Positions 5,790 to 26,597 of a stretch of DNA of 29,216 bases are shown here, piece by piece. Source of the stretch: Promethearchaeota archaeon (GTDB taxonomy: Archaea; Asgardarchaeota; Lokiarchaeia; Sigynarchaeales; SOKP01); NCBI GenBank assembly GCA_019058515.1, contig JAHPYY010000061.1:1-29216 (forward strand), written 5' to 3'. Position 1 is the first letter of the stretch, and each line of letters begins with the position of its first letter. The notes under the pieces are model-generated. The model worked only from the letters and a program-made list of their open reading frames with translations, ran no database searches and was not told where the DNA came from. A program made the translations under genes and the position numbers.

Positions 5790-6194
5790 ATGAATGACTC
5801 AATTACGATAAAGAAGATAGCTGAAGAGTACGATCTAATGTTAATTTACTCATTTGGATCGCGAGCTACAGATACAGATACGCCTTTGAGTGACGTCGAT
5901 ATTGCGATTTTAGTCGATGGCCTTGGTAACAGAGATTTTAAAGCGTTAAGTCTTAATTTAATTTTTAAATTTAGCCAACTATTCGATTCTGATAAAATCG
6001 ATTTATTAATACTTAACAAAGCTTCCCTCGCCATCCAATTTAAGGTAATATCCGAAGGTAAAATTCTTTATCAAAGGAAACTAGAAATTAGAACAGATTT
6101 CGAAGAGAAGGTTATTAAATTGTACTTGGATTTTAAGAAATTTGAAGTCGAATATTATAAGGTAATGTATAACCAAATATTAAAGGGTGAGTGA
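5790..6194 (+). CDS. mntA: MNT-domain nucleotidyltransferase antitoxin (MntA-like)
   Basis: A 134-residue minimal nucleotidyltransferase. Residues G23-S24 and D35-x-D37 form the family signature GS-x10-D-x-D, and a third acidic residue is at D71 (KIDLL). In type VII HEPN/MNT toxin-antitoxin systems this enzyme adds AMP residues to a tyrosine of the HEPN toxin and so silences it. The hepT-like gene follows directly, with the stop codon overlapping a possible GTG of the next gene, so the two are translationally coupled. All catalytic residues are visible, so it is likely active. GGAG at 5776-5779 supports the ATG at 5790. Confidence 0.88.
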   Translation: MNDSITIKKIAEEYDLMLIYSFGSRATDTDTPLSDVDIAILVDGLGNRDFKALSLNLIFKFSQLFDSDKIDLLILNKASLAIQFKVISEGKILYQRKLEIRTDFEEKVIKLYLDFKKFEVEYYKVMYNQILKGE

Positions 6195-6199
6195 ACCTT

Positions 6200-6625
6200 A
6201 TGAAAGTCGATCAAAATGTTATAAATGCGCGAGTCAGTAAAATTCGAGAATATATTAAAATTTTGGAAGAGATACAAGACGAACCGAAGCAGGCATTTAT
6301 GGATAATTATAAAATTTATGGATTGGCAGAAAGATACCTACATTTAGCAATTGAATGCGTACTTGATATCGGAAATCATTTAATATCCAGATTAGAGCTC
6401 CAAAAACCAAACAGATATCAGGAAATATTTCTTATTCTTGGTAAAAACTCTATTCTTCCAATGGAATTTGCTGTAAAAATTGCAAAGATGGCTGGATTTA
6501 GAAACATTTTAATTCATAGTTATTTAGAGATTGATAGAGAACTAGTTTATGAGCATTTACATCATGATATTTCTGATTTTAATGAATATATTAAATATAT
6601 TATCAAATACATCAAGGAACTATAA
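6200..6625 (+). CDS. hepT: HEPN-domain toxin RNase (HepT-like)
   Basis: A four-helix HEPN protein with the catalytic RNILIHSY segment: the R-x4-H RNase motif and the following x-Tyr, the residue that MntA modifies in characterised HepT-MntA pairs. Length (~141 residues) is typical. The frame opens with GTG at 6191 overlapping the mntA stop, but I prefer ATG at 6200 because AAAGGGTGA at 6182-6190 is then a well-spaced ribosome binding site. The toxin is expected to cut RNA when not AMPylated. All key residues are intact. The target RNA, and whether the pair serves defence or stability, cannot be told. Confidence 0.88.
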   Translation: MKVDQNVINARVSKIREYIKILEEIQDEPKQAFMDNYKIYGLAERYLHLAIECVLDIGNHLISRLELQKPNRYQEIFLILGKNSILPMEFAVKIAKMAGFRNILIHSYLEIDRELVYEHLHHDISDFNEYIKYIIKYIKEL

Positions 6626-13782: not shown

Positions 13783-13897
13783 GCAAATCATGGAATTGTA
13801 ATCTATTCCATCTTAGTTTTAGAAATAAAGTTTAAAATATTCATGGATATAACCTTAATTATTACTAATTAAATTGATATAGATTAGTTTGATAATA

Positions 13898-16174
13898 ATG
13901 TTACCTCAAGAAGAGAGTAAGAAAGCAAGTAAAAAGCGCTATAATTACACATTAGCGGTATTAGTGTCTATTTTAATCATTGGAATCTACGCTTCAAGCT
14001 TTTATAACTATTTATTATTTCACACTCTAGCAGAACTTTTTAGTATTTCTATTGCGCTTGGAATCTTCATGATAGCTTGGAATTCCAGAAAGTATATGGA
14101 GGATTCGTTTTTTTTGATTATTGGGGTTTCCTCTCTGTTCATAGGGATTATTGATCTACTTCACACATTAGCCTATACTGGCATGAATATATTTATTGGT
14201 TACACCTCAAATCTACCTGCTTCATTATGGATTGCTGCGAGATATCTTCAAGCGTGTTCAATTTTAATGGCCATTTTAATTAGAGACAGAAGCATCAACA
14301 CTTCATATTTGGCGATCGGATATGGTATTACATTTTCAATCTTGGTTTTCGTAATCTTTTTTAATTTTTTTCCGGTTTGCTATATTGAGGGAAAAGGATT
14401 AACTCCATTCAAGATAGTCAGCGAATATGTAATTATTTCGATTTTCGCAGTTTGTTTAGCCCTGATTTATAAAAATCGGTCACATTTCAATAAAAGGACA
14501 TGGTTGTTTATTTTACTGTTTATACTTGTGAGTATGTCTTCCGAATTTGCCTTCACATTGTATATTGGAGTGTACGATTTCCCAAATTTAGTTGGACATC
14601 TCCTCAAAATCGTTGCGTTCTTTTTTATTTATAGAGGAATCATCGTTGTGGGATTAGAAGATCCTTATAATTCAATCTTTAAACGACTAAAAGATAGTGA
14701 ACAGGAACTCGTGAAAAACGCAGATGCACTTACTCATGCCTATGCCGAAACGGAACAAATTTTCAACGCATCTCTTCCATTGCGATTGATTGATATTGAT
14801 TTTAATATTGTAAGAGTCAACGATACTTTTTGTGACCTATTTGAAGTAAAAGCTGATGAGGTTCTCGGAAAAAGATGCTATGATGTATTCCCACTTGAGT
14901 TTTGTAATACTAGTAAATGTACTATGAAACAAATTAAGAATCATCGAACAAAAATCGAATACGAAGCTAATTATACGCTTAAAAATGGAAGGCAGTTAAC
15001 ACTTTTAGTAAATTCCGTCCCGAAAAAGGATACAAAAGGAGATCTTGTGGGTTTAATTCATAATTATACAGACATTACGGAAAGAAAGACTATTGAAACC
15101 CAACTGAATGAATCAGAAGAAAAATTCCGTTTGACGTTTCAAAATGCAGCTGATGCGATATTTTGGGCTAATGCTGACACAGGAATTATATTAAATTGTA
15201 ATAAAACTTCAGAATTGCTGGTGGATAGACCTAAGGATAAAATTATTGGACAACATCAGTCTTTTCTGCACCCCCCTGATACAGTAGAATTATATAAGAA
15301 TATGTTTAGCGATCTCGCAAAAAGAAGGGGTATTCTTAATGAAGAAGCAGAAATAATTACTAGCTCAGGGAAAATAATTCCAGTTCAAATTACTGCAAGT
15401 TACACTATAATAAACAATATACCTATTATTCAAGGAATATTTCATGATATTAGAGAGCGTAAGAAAGCAGAAAGAAGATTGAAACAATTAATTTCCACAA
15501 TTTCCCACGAATTGAGGACTCCAATAACTGTATTATTGATGTCCCTTGATTTCCTGCGACAGGAAGGTGAAAAGATTACCCCTGATGTCGAACGCAAACT
15601 TCTTGATGGAATTTTTAGAAATGTCGAGTTACTCCATAACTTAGCCAATGATATTCTAGAAGTGGCAAAACTAGATGAGCAGCAAATTGAGTTAGAGTGG
15701 ATCGAGTATAATCCTTTAGAGGTAATTAATGATATCTTAACTTTAATGACTCCAATTGGTAATGAAAAGGGAATTTCATTCGTGGTTAATGTAGATAAAA
15801 ATTTCAATTTGAAAGGAGATCCTAAAAGAATTGACCAAATTTTTCGGATTCTAATCGACAACGCAATAAAGTACTCTAAAAGTAATTCTACTATTAAAAT
15901 TGAAGCCATAGAGAATTACAAGGGAAAATTCAATCCAAAAAATATAAATGGGGTACTTTTTGAGTTTAAGGATAATGGAATTGGGATTAGACGAGATGAG
16001 ATTCCTCATCTATTTGAGAGATTTTTTAGGTCGAGTACCGTTAGTGAAATTCCCGGTACTGGCTTAGGATTAGCAATTGCGAAGGATTTAATTCAACTTC
16101 ACCAAGGTGATATTTATGTTGAGAGCGAATTTGGCAAAGGATCGACTTTTTCTGTATTTTTTCCTTACTTATAA
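13898..16174 (+). CDS. MASE3-PAS-PAS membrane sensor histidine kinase
   Basis: A large sensor kinase (758-761 residues). Residues ~20-255 are a multi-helix membrane sensor; the IDLLHTLAYTGMNIF segment is characteristic of MASE3. Two PAS domains follow (~285-400 and ~410-525), the first with a Cys cluster (C330, C339, C344, counted from the longer start). The HisKA box STISHELRTP has the phospho-acceptor His540. The HATPase_c domain has the N-box (IDNAIKYS), DNGIGI, and the GTGLGL G2 box, ending at ~755. TTG at 13889 opens the frame but ATG at 13898 is likelier. The cognate response regulator follows 72 bp downstream with its own TATA element. Confidence 0.92.
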   Translation: MLPQEESKKASKKRYNYTLAVLVSILIIGIYASSFYNYLLFHTLAELFSISIALGIFMIAWNSRKYMEDSFFLIIGVSSLFIGIIDLLHTLAYTGMNIFIGYTSNLPASLWIAARYLQACSILMAILIRDRSINTSYLAIGYGITFSILVFVIFFNFFPVCYIEGKGLTPFKIVSEYVIISIFAVCLALIYKNRSHFNKRTWLFILLFILVSMSSEFAFTLYIGVYDFPNLVGHLLKIVAFFFIYRGIIVVGLEDPYNSIFKRLKDSEQELVKNADALTHAYAETEQIFNASLPLRLIDIDFNIVRVNDTFCDLFEVKADEVLGKRCYDVFPLEFCNTSKCTMKQIKNHRTKIEYEANYTLKNGRQLTLLVNSVPKKDTKGDLVGLIHNYTDITERKTIETQLNESEEKFRLTFQNAADAIFWANADTGIILNCNKTSELLVDRPKDKIIGQHQSFLHPPDTVELYKNMFSDLAKRRGILNEEAEIITSSGKIIPVQITASYTIINNIPIIQGIFHDIRERKKAERRLKQLISTISHELRTPITVLLMSLDFLRQEGEKITPDVERKLLDGIFRNVELLHNLANDILEVAKLDEQQIELEWIEYNPLEVINDILTLMTPIGNEKGISFVVNVDKNFNLKGDPKRIDQIFRILIDNAIKYSKSNSTIKIEAIENYKGKFNPKNINGVLFEFKDNGIGIRRDEIPHLFERFFRSSTVSEIPGTGLGLAIAKDLIQLHQGDIYVESEFGKGSTFSVFFPYL

Positions 16175-16186
16175 CCTAAATAAAAA

Positions 16187-16195
16187 TTTATATAG
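16187..16195 (+). promoter_or_regulatory. TATA box of the response-regulator gene
   Basis: TTTATATAG sits about 52-60 bp before the ATG at 16247, in the short gap after the kinase stop. It implies that the regulator can also be transcribed on its own. Confidence 0.45.
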
Positions 16196-16246
16196 ATTTA
16201 ACGAATAAATGATAATGATAGTAAGATCCCAATTAATCGATCCCAA

Positions 16247-17152
16247 ATGATATCAGAATATAAACCTTCAATCTTGATTTTAGACGATAACGAGGATATT
16301 CTATTCAATATTGGGCTTTTGTTAGAAACAAAAGATTACGAGGTTATAAAAGCTAAAAGCGCAAATGAAGCTTTAACCTTTTTAAAAACTTCAAATCGAG
16401 TTCCTGATCTTATTTTAAGCGATATTATGATGCCAGAGATGGATGGTTACGATTTTTTTAAGCGATTATCGCAAAATCCTAAGTGGAGCCTAATACCCTT
16501 CGTTTTCCTTACTGCTAAATCAACACCAGAAGACATTAGACTTGGTAAACTTTTAGGTGCTGACGATTATGTTACGAAACCTTTTAAAGAAGATGATTTG
16601 TTAGCAATAATTCAAGGCAAAATCAATCGTAATAAGAAGAGAAAATCAGTAAACGATCAAATCAATAAATTTTTAAACAATTATTTCCAGAAAGATGGAA
16701 AGTTTAGTCAAGAGGGAAAAGAAGACGGTGAGTTATACTTATTTGTCATGCAATGGGATGATAAAGTAGGACCTAGATTAACAACCTCTTTCCCAGAATC
16801 GTCAAAGCTAAAATACTCTCTGGAAGAAATAGGCAGACAGTTATTTCACGCAGCGACGACGATATATGGGTCAAGTATGATAAATAAACCGGAAGAACTA
16901 TTAATTAACATTAAAAACATAAATAAACAAAGCCTAATTTACTTCGATTCTTACGAATCCAGCGAGTCGAGGACCGGACGAGTAGAATACATGCTCGCAG
17001 TAATCGGTCAAAGGGTAAGCATATTTGAGTCGTTAAAGATTAAGCCAATTTTGCAAAAATTATCGTCTGACATTAAAAACCAGTCTTCTCAAGAGTTAGA
17101 GGTATATTGGAACGAAATTAGAAACGAATTTATTGGTGCACTGTATCTTTAA
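16247..17152 (+). CDS. Response regulator with a C-terminal longin-like (tentative) domain
   Basis: Residues 1-125 are a CheY-like receiver: acidic pair D13-D14, phospho-acceptor D59 (LILSD), T89 and K111 (VTKPF), all intact. After a charged linker (~128-160) comes a domain of ~135 residues starting LYLFVMQWDDKVGPRL and containing a SLIYFDSYES strand and a MLAVIGQRVSIFE strand. It is not a DNA-binding or enzymatic output domain that I know. Its YxFVxxWDxxxGP opening resembles longin/roadblock-type small alpha/beta folds used by Asgard GTPase systems, but that is a guess from strand pattern. The stop overlaps the convergent SRPBCC gene by 4 bp. Confidence 0.82.
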   Translation: MISEYKPSILILDDNEDILFNIGLLLETKDYEVIKAKSANEALTFLKTSNRVPDLILSDIMMPEMDGYDFFKRLSQNPKWSLIPFVFLTAKSTPEDIRLGKLLGADDYVTKPFKEDDLLAIIQGKINRNKKRKSVNDQINKFLNNYFQKDGKFSQEGKEDGELYLFVMQWDDKVGPRLTTSFPESSKLKYSLEEIGRQLFHAATTIYGSSMINKPEELLINIKNINKQSLIYFDSYESSESRTGRVEYMLAVIGQRVSIFESLKIKPILQKLSSDIKNQSSQELEVYWNEIRNEFIGALYL

Positions 17153-21164: not shown

Positions 21165-24100
21165 ATGAAACCTAGCCATTTTAAGTTTCAGATTAAGATT
21201 TTAACTTTAATAGTAATACTCGTTTTTATTATTAATTTGAGCCTAACAGACTCCACTTCTATAAAAAATCAAATAAAAGAGGATTTTTCTTTAAAAAACC
21301 CTCCCAAACAATCTAATACAATACTGGAAGCGTGGACTCCAAATGGTAATGTAATAAGTAACGAAATTAGTACGCAATCAAGCTCTAAACTCTGTAGCGA
21401 TGGAGTAGGAGGGGTGATAATCACGTGGTATGATCAAAGAGATAATGCTATAACTGGTGCTGACATCTACGCTCAACGGATTAACTTTACTGGAGGTGTT
21501 GAGTGGACTCCAAATGGTACTGTAGTAAGTAACGCTATTAATGGTCAATATTCTCCTCAACTCTGTAGCGATGGAGTAGGAGGGGCGATAATCACATGGC
21601 AAGATTACAGAGATAGTGCTACAACTGGTTATGACATTTACGCTCAACGAGTTAACTCTACTGGAGGTATTGAGTGGGCTCCAAATGGTACTATAGTAAG
21701 TAACGAAATTGGTACGCAATCAAGCCCTCAACTCTGTAGCGATGGAGTAGGGGGGGCAATAATCACGTGGTATGATTATAGAGATAGTGAAACGACAGGT
21801 GTTGACATCTATACTCAACGAATTAAGTCTACTGGAGACATTGAGTGGAGCTCTAACGGTCTTTTATTTTGTAACGCCAATAATACTCAAACTACTCCCC
21901 AAATATGTAATGATGGGAAAGGAAACGCAATAATTACTTGGACGGATTATAGAGATCTTGCTATTACATCGCACGATGTCTATGCTTTAAAGATATCCCC
22001 AGTCATACCGTTATCGCATAATTGGACTGTTGGCGGTATCGATATTTGGAGAAATGATACAGCTATGCAAAGACCACAGATTTGTAGCGATGGAGTAGGA
22101 GGGGCGATAATCACGTGGCAAGATTATAGAGATAGTGCTACAACTGGTTCTGACATCTACACGCAACGAATTAACTCTACTGGAGGTATTGAGTGGACGG
22201 CTAATGGCTCTGTGATATGTAATGCGATAGAATCTCAACATGATCTTCAAATCTGTAGCGATGGAGTAGGAGGGGCGATAATCGTGTGGCGAGACTCTAG
22301 AGATAGTGCTACATCTGGTTCTGATATCTACGCACAACATATTAACTCTACTGGAGGTGTTGAGTGGACAGTTAATGGCACTCTTATATGTAACGCAATA
22401 GCTACTCAATATAATGTTCAAATTTGTAGCGATGGGGTAGGAGGAGCGATAATCGCGTGGCAAGATTCTAGAGATAGTGCTACAACTGGTTCCGACATCT
22501 ACGCGCAACGGATTGATTCTACTGGAGATGTCGAGTGGATGGTTAATGGCACTGTGATATGTAATGCCACCAAATATCAACAATATCCTCAACTATGTAG
22601 CGATGGAGTTGGAGGGGCGTTAATTACTTGGGAAGATCGTAGATATACCTATTATGATATATTCGCAAGTCGAATTATTTTATCCACTCCTATTTCGAAT
22701 AATCCTGAACCCATAACTACTTATACATCAACACCTGAAGAGATTAACTGGATATTAACAGACTATTTCGGCGGAGGAAGCTATCGGGTTATAGTTAACG
22801 ATTCATATGGAAATAATTATACTTATATCAATTGGACATCTTGGAATAGTAATCCTGCCAATTTATATTTTCCAATCAATCATACTATTGCAGGATTATT
22901 TTACTATACAATAGAATATTACAATGAATTCATGCTATATGGCATTCCCAACACAGTAAATGTTACTATACTCGAGGATAAACCTCCGTATTGTAATCAA
23001 CCTGGAGATGTGTTAATTCATTATGGAAATAAGCAAAATATCACGTGGATTTTATACGATGATGATTGGGGAGGAGGAAGTTATTGTGTTAAATCTACTC
23101 ATGAAAAGTATGGTACTCAAGTCTTAAAAGATTGGACAAGTTGGAACAACGAAACGGAAATATCAATAGAAATTAATAGTACTGAATATCAAGAATTAGA
23201 TTATAAAATTGAATATACAGATTTTTATGGGCAATTTAGAAGTGATAATGTGCATGTTACAATTACTGATCTTGTAAGTCCGATAATAGAAGTAAACCCC
23301 TCAAGTAATAACGATCTTTTTGGGAAAAGGGCACCAGATCTTTATCTAGAGATAACAGAACCCAATTATAATAATACATGGTATACACTTGACGGTGGAA
23401 TTACTAATTTCACTTGTACAACTAATTTAACGATAGATCAAGAATCTTGGGACAAGTATGGTAATGGAACAGTAGATATTTTAATCTTTTCTAAAGATGA
23501 TTATGGAAATATCGGATTTCTAAATTATACCGTGAGAAAGGATATTATACCGCCGGATATTACAATTGAAGGGATAAAGTTGAATGATGAATTTTCTGAT
23601 ATCGCTCCAAGTTTCGAACTCACCGTAATAGATCCAAATTTAGAAAGTGTCTGGTATACATTAGATGATGGAGCAACAAATATTTCACTTTCCTCCTTTC
23701 AGGATCATATTAATCAATCTCTTTGGGATGAATTATCATATGGACAAGTAACAATTAGATTTTATGCAAACGATACAGTTGGAAATATTGGTATGGAAGA
23801 AATAAGGATCATAAAAATAAACGAAGGAGGCTTAGATTTGGGAGTGATAATTTTGGGAGCCTCTATTGCTGGAGGTGCTGGTGCCATAATTGGAACAGCT
23901 ATTATAATTACACCACGGATTAAGAAGCAAAAGTACATAAAGAATTTAAAACTTAAAGCAAAGGAGGATTTACAATTTTTTGAGCAAAAAATCCAACAAT
24001 ATCTTGTTACCCAATTAGAAGATCATTATGGCGATGAATGGTGGGAAAAAGGCGTTCCTGAAAATCTCCGAATTAATATCAATACTAAATTGAAGGCAAA

Positions 24101-24749
24101 AGGGATACCCCCGCCAAAATTAGAAGCTCAAAATATGACACACTTAGAATATAATGATTATTTCCCGATCATTACCGAAGATGAGAACTGGAACGATTTA
24201 TTCTCCGATGTTTTTGTCGATAAAGATAGCCTTGGAGAAAATTTCGAAAACCTAAGGAATTTCAAATCCAATCTAGAGAAAGACATTGTCACGGTTGAAG
24301 AGTTAAATGGATATCCTCTATTTTTATACAGCATTACTAATTGTTTCACCAAAACATTTAATGTGTTTTTAAGCTATTCGACGAGAGATACCGATCATTT
24401 TAACATCAAGGAGATTTCGAAACGCTTGGAGGAATACCCTAAGATTGATACAGTCTTTTATTGGGAAGAAGATAGCGGCGAGGATATTGTGAAATACATG
24501 GAGCGAGCCCTTAAAATCAGCAGAGTATTTATATTATTTTGTACAGAAAATTCACTAAAATCTAAGGCAGTCACTGACGAGTGGGAATCTGCATTTCAGT
24601 TAAGAAAGGAAGGGATGATGAAAATCTTACCTGTATACGAACAAGATAAAAATATTCCTGTTTTGCTTAAACCAATATTAAATGTTAAATACGACAAGGA
24701 TAACTTTGACGAATTCATTGAGAATTTATATAAAGAAATAACAAGATAG
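21165..24749 (+). CDS. Transmembrane repeat/Ig-like receptor with cytoplasmic Swt1-HEPN-like and TIR domains
   Basis: A 1194-residue membrane protein. A signal peptide or anchor occupies ~1-30 (basic, then a long Ile/Leu/Val run). Residues ~53-508 are eight ~57-residue repeats with the core CSDGVGGAIITW and DIYAQRINSTGG, possibly a beta-propeller, rich in N-x-S/T sequons. Two to four Ig-like domains follow (~510-885; WILTDYFGGGSY, WYTLDGG-type strands). One Gly-rich membrane helix lies at ~893-917, then basic residues (inside). A cytoplasmic domain at ~935-1050 resembles Swt1-like HEPN (GDEWWEKGVPENLR; NWNDLFSDVF), but its R-x4-H is R1031-x4-N1036. A TIR domain (~1066-1194) starts NVFLSYSTRD and has a Glu (~E1139, in TDEW) where NADase TIRs carry the catalytic Glu. 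No Shine-Dalgarno is seen. Confidence 0.88.
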   Translation: MKPSHFKFQIKILTLIVILVFIINLSLTDSTSIKNQIKEDFSLKNPPKQSNTILEAWTPNGNVISNEISTQSSSKLCSDGVGGVIITWYDQRDNAITGADIYAQRINFTGGVEWTPNGTVVSNAINGQYSPQLCSDGVGGAIITWQDYRDSATTGYDIYAQRVNSTGGIEWAPNGTIVSNEIGTQSSPQLCSDGVGGAIITWYDYRDSETTGVDIYTQRIKSTGDIEWSSNGLLFCNANNTQTTPQICNDGKGNAIITWTDYRDLAITSHDVYALKISPVIPLSHNWTVGGIDIWRNDTAMQRPQICSDGVGGAIITWQDYRDSATTGSDIYTQRINSTGGIEWTANGSVICNAIESQHDLQICSDGVGGAIIVWRDSRDSATSGSDIYAQHINSTGGVEWTVNGTLICNAIATQYNVQICSDGVGGAIIAWQDSRDSATTGSDIYAQRIDSTGDVEWMVNGTVICNATKYQQYPQLCSDGVGGALITWEDRRYTYYDIFASRIILSTPISNNPEPITTYTSTPEEINWILTDYFGGGSYRVIVNDSYGNNYTYINWTSWNSNPANLYFPINHTIAGLFYYTIEYYNEFMLYGIPNTVNVTILEDKPPYCNQPGDVLIHYGNKQNITWILYDDDWGGGSYCVKSTHEKYGTQVLKDWTSWNNETEISIEINSTEYQELDYKIEYTDFYGQFRSDNVHVTITDLVSPIIEVNPSSNNDLFGKRAPDLYLEITEPNYNNTWYTLDGGITNFTCTTNLTIDQESWDKYGNGTVDILIFSKDDYGNIGFLNYTVRKDIIPPDITIEGIKLNDEFSDIAPSFELTVIDPNLESVWYTLDDGATNISLSSFQDHINQSLWDELSYGQVTIRFYANDTVGNIGMEEIRIIKINEGGLDLGVIILGASIAGGAGAIIGTAIIITPRIKKQKYIKNLKLKAKEDLQFFEQKIQQYLVTQLEDHYGDEWWEKGVPENLRININTKLKAKGIPPPKLEAQNMTHLEYNDYFPIITEDENWNDLFSDVFVDKDSLGENFENLRNFKSNLEKDIVTVEELNGYPLFLYSITNCFTKTFNVFLSYSTRDTDHFNIKEISKRLEEYPKIDTVFYWEEDSGEDIVKYMERALKISRVFILFCTENSLKSKAVTDEWESAFQLRKEGMMKILPVYEQDKNIPVLLKPILNVKYDKDNFDEFIENLYKEITR
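21321..22698 (+). repeat. Eight tandem ~171-bp coding repeats in the TIR receptor ectodomain
   Basis: Repeats 1-3 and 5-8 stay near-identical at DNA level in their core (around TGTAGCGATGGAGTAGGAGG and the GAGATAGTGCTACAACTGG stretch), while repeat 4 (~21840-22010) is strongly diverged and repeat 8 is shortened. The variable stretches lie between cores (after NG(T/S)VICNA). Such conservation of synonymous sites indicates recent duplication or gene conversion, so copy number may vary between strains. Confidence 0.8.
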
Positions 24750-24848: not shown

Positions 24849-26225
24849 TTAGACTTCTTTTTCGATATAGGCTAATTTTTCTAATAGAGATTTTAATTTT
24901 ATTGATTCAAAACCTCCTGAAAGCTGAATGTTCACCAAAGATTCGTCACTCGTACCAGTTACATTTATTTCAATTAGCAGATCGTCTGTTCGAATTTGTT
25001 TTGTTTGACGTTGTTGAAACGCAGACTTTATTGGCTCGTCTAATTTTGGAAATTCAGCGGCTATTTCTGCCCATAAATCTTTCCAAAAAGAGTATTTGAA
25101 CACAAAATCCGTAACTGTTTGCTTAAATAGTTCTAAGTTAACCCGATTTATCAAGTCCGCTCTATTTGGTACCTGTAGATCCTCAATCAATTCATTTCTG
25201 ATTTCGGCTAACTTTTCAATGTTACCTACTTTGGATTGAGTGATGATTTCACTCACTAGCTTTTGATAGGACTTATTGTTAATACTCTCAATAAATGGTA
25301 ATAAGTCGTATTTAATGATAAGGTCGTTTTTTTCGTAGTTTTTAATTTCAGTTAAATCGGTTTTATTCGAAGTACCGTTTCGAATTCTTTCGGTAATTTC
25401 GTAGCAGATTTCTCGGTTTTTAAATCGTCGAGTGATTTTTTCCATTAATGACTTGCTAAACATATACTCATCTCCCCAGAACGGAGATTTATCTAATTCT
25501 CGAGAGGAATAAGTAACCCGATGCGATAATATGTAAGGAGCAAGAGTGTCGACAATGCTAGTTTCAATCTCGTCAATATCCAATAGCCAAGATATTGCTT
25601 TTGAATATCGGAGCAAATCTTTGGCAACTCTCACGCTTAATACGCTATCGATTTTATTACAAATATTTTCGGCCGTGTTGTAATGACAACCCGAACACAA
25701 TCCTGTGCTAGGTTTTATTCTTTCGGAATTTTCTTTTTCGATGCGAGCACACAATGTGAATTCTCTTACAATAGCGTGAATATAGTTATTAAGTTTATCG
25801 TTAGATTGTTTTTTATTTACAAAATACCAAATTTCCATTAGTTCATCGATAGTTAAGATTCTTGGAACTTGTATTAACTCGTCAAATCCGCTATATTTTT
25901 CGTCTTTACCTTCGAGTATTAAGTTTAAGTCAAGACTACTGGGCATTGAGACCGGGACGGAAATTCCAAACCTATCCAAAAACGGATTAGATAATTCAAA
26001 TGTTCCCACATCTTGAGGATTTATCGTAGCATACAGGCAATATTTATTAATGTCTGTAATAGAATCGTAATACTTAACTGTTCCTTCTGCCAACAACGAC
26101 AATAAGATATCCTGAGCATAGGGAGTCAAACGATTGACTTCATCGATGATCTTCCAAAAATCTAAGATAAAATTTCGCCATACTACTTCTTCAACTCCAT
26201 CGTGCATTAATTTTCCTAGTTTCAA
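24849..26225 (-). CDS. MoxR-type AAA+ ATPase, C-terminal part (after the insert)
   Basis: Contains the Walker B of a MoxR AAA+ ATPase (IIDEVNRL, ~27-34), sensor-type segment YATINPQDVG and the arginine-finger region NPFLDRFG, followed by a helical lid and a long C-terminal extension (residues ~180-458) with a CSGCHYN cysteine/His site. Walker A is missing and lies in the preceding ORF. In the same reading frame PQLTEEKLVGT continues up to 26258, directly after the stop-bearing insert. If translated alone, TTG at 26225 would start it, without a clear ribosome binding site. The fused protein would be ~572 residues. It probably remodels the VWA protein encoded beyond the TIR gene. Confidence 0.85.
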   Translation of the reverse strand: MKLGKLMHDGVEEVVWRNFILDFWKIIDEVNRLTPYAQDILLSLLAEGTVKYYDSITDINKYCLYATINPQDVGTFELSNPFLDRFGISVPVSMPSSLDLNLILEGKDEKYSGFDELIQVPRILTIDELMEIWYFVNKKQSNDKLNNYIHAIVREFTLCARIEKENSERIKPSTGLCSGCHYNTAENICNKIDSVLSVRVAKDLLRYSKAISWLLDIDEIETSIVDTLAPYILSHRVTYSSRELDKSPFWGDEYMFSKSLMEKITRRFKNREICYEITERIRNGTSNKTDLTEIKNYEKNDLIIKYDLLPFIESINNKSYQKLVSEIITQSKVGNIEKLAEIRNELIEDLQVPNRADLINRVNLELFKQTVTDFVFKYSFWKDLWAEIAAEFPKLDEPIKSAFQQRQTKQIRTDDLLIEINVTGTSDESLVNIQLSGGFESIKLKSLLEKLAYIEKEV

Positions 26226-26258
26226 GGTCCCTACTAATTTTTCTTCGGTCAGCTGGGG

Positions 26259-26288
26259 TTAATCGCTAAGAGAGAAATTCTTTTAACT
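26259..26288 (-). other. 30-nt in-frame insert with two stop codons inside the MoxR gene
   Basis: The frame reads RGH, then the insert (Ser, stop, seven codons, stop), then PQLTEEK. MoxR homologues have RGHP(Q/E)-type continuity here, so the insert looks precise. On the coding strand GTTAA (26287-26283) pairs with TTAAC (26262-26258) at its ends, and AAGA (26282-26279) with TCTT (26271-26268), with a 7-nt loop. GGTCA (26294-26290) and TGACC (26251-26247) outside can form a further helix. Intron, bypass element or disruption remain open. Confidence 0.6.
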
Positions 26289-26597
26289 ATGACCCCTCAC
26301 AACTGACATTTCAATCTCGCTAAGTGACCTTGATGTAAACATTCGTCCAAGTAATTTTACAAGGGTGGTTTTTCCTCCTCCGTGACCACCAATAAGTAGC
26401 ATTGCTGAATTAGGTACAATCGCATTTAACACACATAGCGTTAAAATCTCTGGTAAAGTGCGTCTGATTAGCCTTTTAGCCTTACTTTCAGTATATTTAA
26501 CTTCAATACTCTTTGAATGCACAAATAGTTGGTTTGCTTGAAGAATGTTAATAATTCTCCACACTTTTTTCCTTAGATCGTGTTCTTCCAAGCTCAA
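26283..26597 (-). CDS. MoxR-type AAA+ ATPase, N-terminal part with Walker A
   Basis: A 104-codon ORF holding the N-terminal helices and the P-loop GGHGGGKTTLVK (~residues 69-80) of the MoxR AAA+ ATPase, ending at SVVRGHS just before the homology resumes downstream. TTG at 26597 has a GAGGT Shine-Dalgarno (26605-26609) and no ATG alternative, so expression is intended. Alone it cannot bind and hydrolyse ATP normally, since Walker B and sensors are in the second half. It lies 39 bp after the HNH-like gene stop on the same strand, probably in one transcript. Confidence 0.85.
   Translation of the reverse strand: MSLEEHDLRKKVWRIINILQANQLFVHSKSIEVKYTESKAKRLIRRTLPEILTLCVLNAIVPNSAMLLIGGHGGGKTTLVKLLGRMFTSRSLSEIEMSVVRGHS

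What the first reader, a model, noticed from the sequence alone, without database searches (positions are those of the whole stretch)
21165..24749. A Toll-like receptor architecture in an archaeon: repeat/Ig ectodomain, one TM helix, cytoplasmic TIR
The order signal peptide, eight surface repeats, Ig-like domains, a single membrane helix, then a C-terminal TIR puts a TIR domain inside the cell behind an extracellular recognition part. Prokaryotic TIRs are mostly soluble (Thoeris, TIR-APAZ, TIR-STING). A putative catalytic Glu suggests NAD+ cleavage or signalling. If the genome is Asgard, this bears on the origins of eukaryotic innate immune receptors.
Basis: partly seen in the sequence, partly recalled or inferred. 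Interest (0 to 1): 0.88.

Follow-up and report, generated by a model that had tools for sequence, protein, structure and literature searches.

The report
Asgard archaeal cell-surface TIR receptor
A gene from an Asgard-type archaeon encodes a predicted cell-surface receptor with a sensor outside, one membrane helix, and inside the cell a TIR domain of the kind used in immune signalling, and it belongs to a larger, apparently undescribed archaeal family whose outer parts are swapped while the inner TIR part is kept.

The parts
21165..24749 (+). whole gene, 1194-aa predicted single-pass TIR receptor
21165..21254 (+). N-terminal hydrophobic signal (res 1-30)
   Evidence: hydropathy 2.51 at res 10-28; no dedicated signal-peptide predictor was available
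21318..22688 (+). beta-propeller of eight 57-aa repeats (about res 52-508)
22689..23822 (+). four Ig/PKD-like beta-sandwich domains forming a stalk (about res 509-886)
   Evidence: strands in AF2 model; unit count by eye; no Pfam match
23835..23912 (+). transmembrane helix (about res 891-916) followed by a K/R-rich stretch
   Evidence: AF2 pLDDT below 50 over model residues 1-29
23970..24260 (+). HEPN_Swt1-like helical domain (res 936-1032), no R-x4-6-H motif
   Evidence: helices with mostly high pLDDT
24354..24746 (+). TIR domain (res 1064-1194)
24579..24581 (+). putative catalytic glutamate E1139
   Evidence: invariant in 19 of 19; aligned with plant TIR Glu

Best explanation
A cell-surface receptor of an Asgard (probably Lokiarchaeia-related) archaeon. 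The propeller and sandwich stalk meet a ligand outside; clustering passes through one helix and the HEPN-like domain and brings TIR domains together inside, where they cleave or cyclise NAD+ to give a signal or shut the cell down. Supported by computation: architecture, predicted topology, TIR fold, conserved Glu, interchangeable ectodomains. Inferred: glycosylation, ligand binding, oligomerisation, NADase chemistry, defence or recognition role.
For: Fold. Topology: sequons 29 observed vs 12.0 expected outside (0 of 1000 shuffles reach it), 1 vs 1.9 inside; 7 K/R after the helix; 53 of 59 relatives from another search have a single pre-TIR helix, all 53 with more K/R after than before. Chemistry: Glu in 10 of 10, 19 of 19, 94 of 96 rows (the two Q rows are overlapping pieces of one gene), 59 of 59; these sets overlap. 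Interchangeable sensors. Several paralogues per genome. Ectodomain divergence in P0008/P0009.
Against: No experiment. The membrane helix is Gly/Ala-rich and AF2 gives it pLDDT below 50. Sequon enrichment is clear in 6 of 10 family proteins and absent in 4. The HEPN match is under Pfam's cut-off. I saw no recurrent partner gene in the loci I read, but made no systematic neighbourhood survey. The ectodomain type is common on proteins without TIR, bacterial ones included (1602 hits, 120 listed), so it may be a general adhesive module. Of three close pairs compared, P0008/P0009 show strong ectodomain divergence, P0001/P0002 divergence in the first repeats and repeat number, P0004/L001 none (90-100% throughout). 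A Glu at this position occurs in over 70% of all TIRs (PMC7075850 passage), so it does not prove activity.
Confidence: 0.55

Rival explanations
1. The TIR is a non-enzymatic scaffold that recruits other TIR proteins, as animal TLR TIRs do.
For: Foldseek's first hits are MyD88 and Hydra TRR-2 TIRs; many other TIR proteins in the same genomes could be partners.
Against: The putative catalytic Glu is kept in 59 of 59 and 94 of 96 rows. This is weak against a scaffold, since over 70% of all TIRs keep it (PMC7075850 passage).
Confidence: 0.2
2. A surface adhesin or partner-recognition receptor (symbiosis, kin or nutrient sensing) with a TIR output, not defence. It overlaps with the best explanation, which leaves the role open.
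For: Ectodomains include solute-binding SBP_bac_5 and Peripla_BP_6; ectodomain relatives without TIR are common; no link to a defence locus was seen.
Against: Many paralogues, one TIR remnant of 54 aa just after the intact gene in G001 and one pair with a strongly divergent propeller resemble conflict genes, but do not prove it.
Confidence: 0.4
3. Effector of a MoxR-vWA conflict system: the gene lies between a vWA gene and a MoxR-type AAA gene.
For: Position in window; MoxR-vWA ternary systems can carry TIR (PMC8195603 passages).
Against: Of 98 genomes with matches to both genes on one contig, 89 have a gap of at most 500 bp and 9 a larger one (from the rows). Four of these nine gaps were read (L148-L151) and hold no TIR ORF even at E=10; the other five were not read. 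In the window the AAA gene is itself interrupted by stops.
Confidence: 0.05

Closest known systems
Animal Toll-like receptors / IL-1R family
   Same: Single-pass receptor, extracellular recognition part, cytoplasmic TIR (as described in PMC7075850 passages).
   Different: Propeller and sandwich ectodomain instead of LRRs; HEPN-like juxtamembrane domain; catalytic-type Glu kept; TIR_2 is the better Pfam model.
SPARTA (TIR-APAZ)
   Different: No Argonaute or APAZ match in the protein or the scanned neighbours; membrane receptor.
Thoeris ThsB
   Same: TIR related; ThsB_TIR weak match E=0.082, 3 of 7 members at E up to 0.01.
   Different: No ThsA-like neighbour in the window; STALD matches 14 of 227 phylum genomes, of which only G001 and G107 are among the TIR-positive genomes.
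LRR-TIR, WD40-TIR and TPR-TIR proteins of the same archaea (L006, L008, L029; L039, L093, L111; L066, L088)
   Same: Same TIR family; L029 also matches the HEPN model built here (E=2.7e-39), though Pfam HEPN_Swt1 does not list it at 0.01.
   Different: No hydrophobic helix before the TIR by hydropathy.

Membership tests
TIR domain (Pfam TIR_2) | profile match over curated cut-off and TIR fold | tested here: met
NAD+-cleaving TIR | catalytic Glu | tested here: met
   E1139
NAD+-cleaving TIR | NADase activity | not testable with these tools
   needs an assay
Toll-like receptor | LRR ectodomain | tested here: not met
   no LRR match; propeller model
Toll-like receptor | single membrane helix with cytoplasmic TIR | tested here: met
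   by prediction only: hydropathy, charge, sequons
Toll-like receptor | common ancestry with animal TLRs | not tested
   no tree was built
Thoeris | ThsA partner beside the TIR gene | tested here: not met
   20 window neighbours scanned; STALD survey
SPARTA | short Argonaute/APAZ | tested here: not met
   no such Pfam match in the protein or the 20 scanned neighbours
HEPN_Swt1 | Pfam match | tested here: inconclusive
   7 of 7 members match at E up to 0.01, best E=1e-5, but the window scores 26.2 against cut-off 27.5
HEPN ribonuclease | R-x4-6-H motif | tested here: not met
   absent from 9 of 10 sequences including the window; P0003 alone has one match, not shared by the others

The most novel reading that the evidence does not exclude
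Lokiarchaeia-related Asgard archaea carry a receptor-based immune-type repertoire: surface TIR receptors with fast-changing, interchangeable ectodomains, and cytosolic LRR-, WD40- and TPR-TIR sensors built on the same TIR cassette, parallel to TLRs and NLRs.
Probability: 0.35. Interest if true: 0.95.

Novelty: new variant of a known kind. Interest (0 to 1): 0.82.

Why it matters
Single-pass surface receptors with a cytoplasmic TIR are textbook animal receptors; the TIR survey of which I read passages describes them for metazoan groups. A large family of the same layout in archaea regarded as closest to eukaryotes makes it testable whether archaea sense the outside world with TIR signalling, and whether the layout arose independently.

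Tried and rejected
Own-genome search: none held for the window. Viral contigs: 304 pattern stretches, no relative confirmed. Profile search of solved structures with A3: at E up to 0.01 only Cat1 (E=0.0016). MoxR-vWA link: not supported. Thoeris link: not supported. Promoter-like sites no more than chance (17 vs 19.3; sigma-70 scan, not made for archaea); no tRNA or Rfam match in the window. Pseudogene cluster: I first took the stops reported for the G005:C38 matches as decay, but three further TIR ORFs there are open (451, 595 and 590 aa), so those stops lie outside the TIR frames; the only remnant I can point to is the 54-aa piece in G001. Caspase as an intracellular effector: in P0027 and P0120 the caspase-like part precedes a late hydrophobic segment, so it looks extracellular (by eye). 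No phylogeny with eukaryotic TIRs was built, so ancestry stays open. The HEPN part was not folded or searched alone; the VIA rows cover the TIR only.

Full report

Topology. Sequons: 29 vs 12.0 expected in the ectodomain, 1 vs 1.9 in the cytoplasmic part. Of ten family proteins tested, six show ectodomain enrichment (P0001, P0003-P0007, p up to 0.017) and four do not (P0008-P0011). All ten have 5-8 K/R in the 15 residues after the helix and 0-2 in the 15 before it.

Family. Searching with residues 890-1194 gave 11 proteins including the window's own, with beta-helix or FG-GAP ectodomains besides the propeller. The genome-contig scan gave 8 loci, all 8 titled Lokiarchaeota or Lokiarchaeia. In G001's phylum 65 of 227 genomes match at E up to 0.001, with up to 11 matches each, weak ones included. 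From 80 chosen regions plus earlier loci, 96 TIR ORF rows were taken (at least two are pieces of one gene): 27 fit ectodomain + helix + TIR, 52 have no helix before TIR, 12 are multi-helix, 3 fragments, 2 other. Pfam on 22 of them shows beta-helix, SBP_bac_5, Peripla_BP_6, fn3, LVIVD, SBBP, LRR, WD40, TPR and kinase partners. A search with another member's TIR gave 59 proteins; 13 rows carry a taxon name and all 13 are Asgard. Of the 59, 53 have one pre-TIR helix, all 53 positive inside, 40 of the 53 with a signal-like N-terminus; of the other six, five carry hydrophobic segments nearer the N-terminus and P0184 is an LRR protein.

Ectodomain relatives. Residues 45-890 gave 1602 proteins, 120 listed. 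Named ones include Asgard archaea but also bacteria (for example Kiritimatiellae, Krumholzibacteria), so this sensor type is not Asgard-specific and mostly not tied to TIR. Three of those I read do carry TIR (P0015, P0018, P0036).

Variation. P0008 and P0009 are 94-100% identical from residue 501 on but 40-62% over residues 1-350 (50-residue windows). P0001 and P0002 are identical from about residue 251 on apart from a 229-residue repeat insertion in P0002, and diverge in the first repeats. P0004 and L001 show no such contrast. The sources, where named, are metagenome assemblies, so mis-assembly is possible.

Context. The gene stands alone on its strand between a vWA gene and a MoxR-type AAA gene. 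These two lie within 500 bp of each other in 89 of 98 genomes that have both on one contig, and four of the nine wider gaps were read and hold no TIR, so the insertion seems local. No Thoeris partner was found.

Literature. Eight searches of the held library found no paper describing Asgard surface TIR receptors; the whole-word term may have been too strict. I read passages only of PMC11249213, PMC7075850, PMC11291487, PMC8195603 and PMC10732462; the rest I saw as listings. The two passages of PMC11291487 that hold the word TIR name known TIR defence systems, not this architecture. Subscription papers are mostly not held and bioRxiv preprints are not held as a library, so prior description cannot be excluded.

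Judgement. Architecture and fold are well supported by computation; enzymatic TIR signalling is likely; an immune role is plausible but unproven.

Noticed in passing
window 26225-26597 (-): The MoxR-type AAA gene next door is interrupted by stop codons in a short stretch; many relatives have open frames of about 575-600 aa.
   Followed up: partly
P0027, P0120: A very similar propeller-sandwich ectodomain is joined to a caspase-like domain that appears extracellular.
   Followed up: partly
P0012: A Hermodarchaeota protein has the same kind of ectodomain and helix but ends within what looks like the HEPN part, without a TIR (by eye).
   Followed up: no
L006 (G005:C38): Four TIR ORFs within about 10 kb, one of them an LRR-TIR protein.
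   Followed up: partly
L155 about 13746 (G001): A 54-aa TIR remnant lies just after the intact receptor gene.
   Followed up: no
window 13889-17152: MASE3-PAS histidine kinase followed by a response-regulator gene.
   Followed up: no
window 5790-6625: Nucleotidyltransferase/HepT-like pair, the make-up of a toxin-antitoxin module.
   Followed up: no
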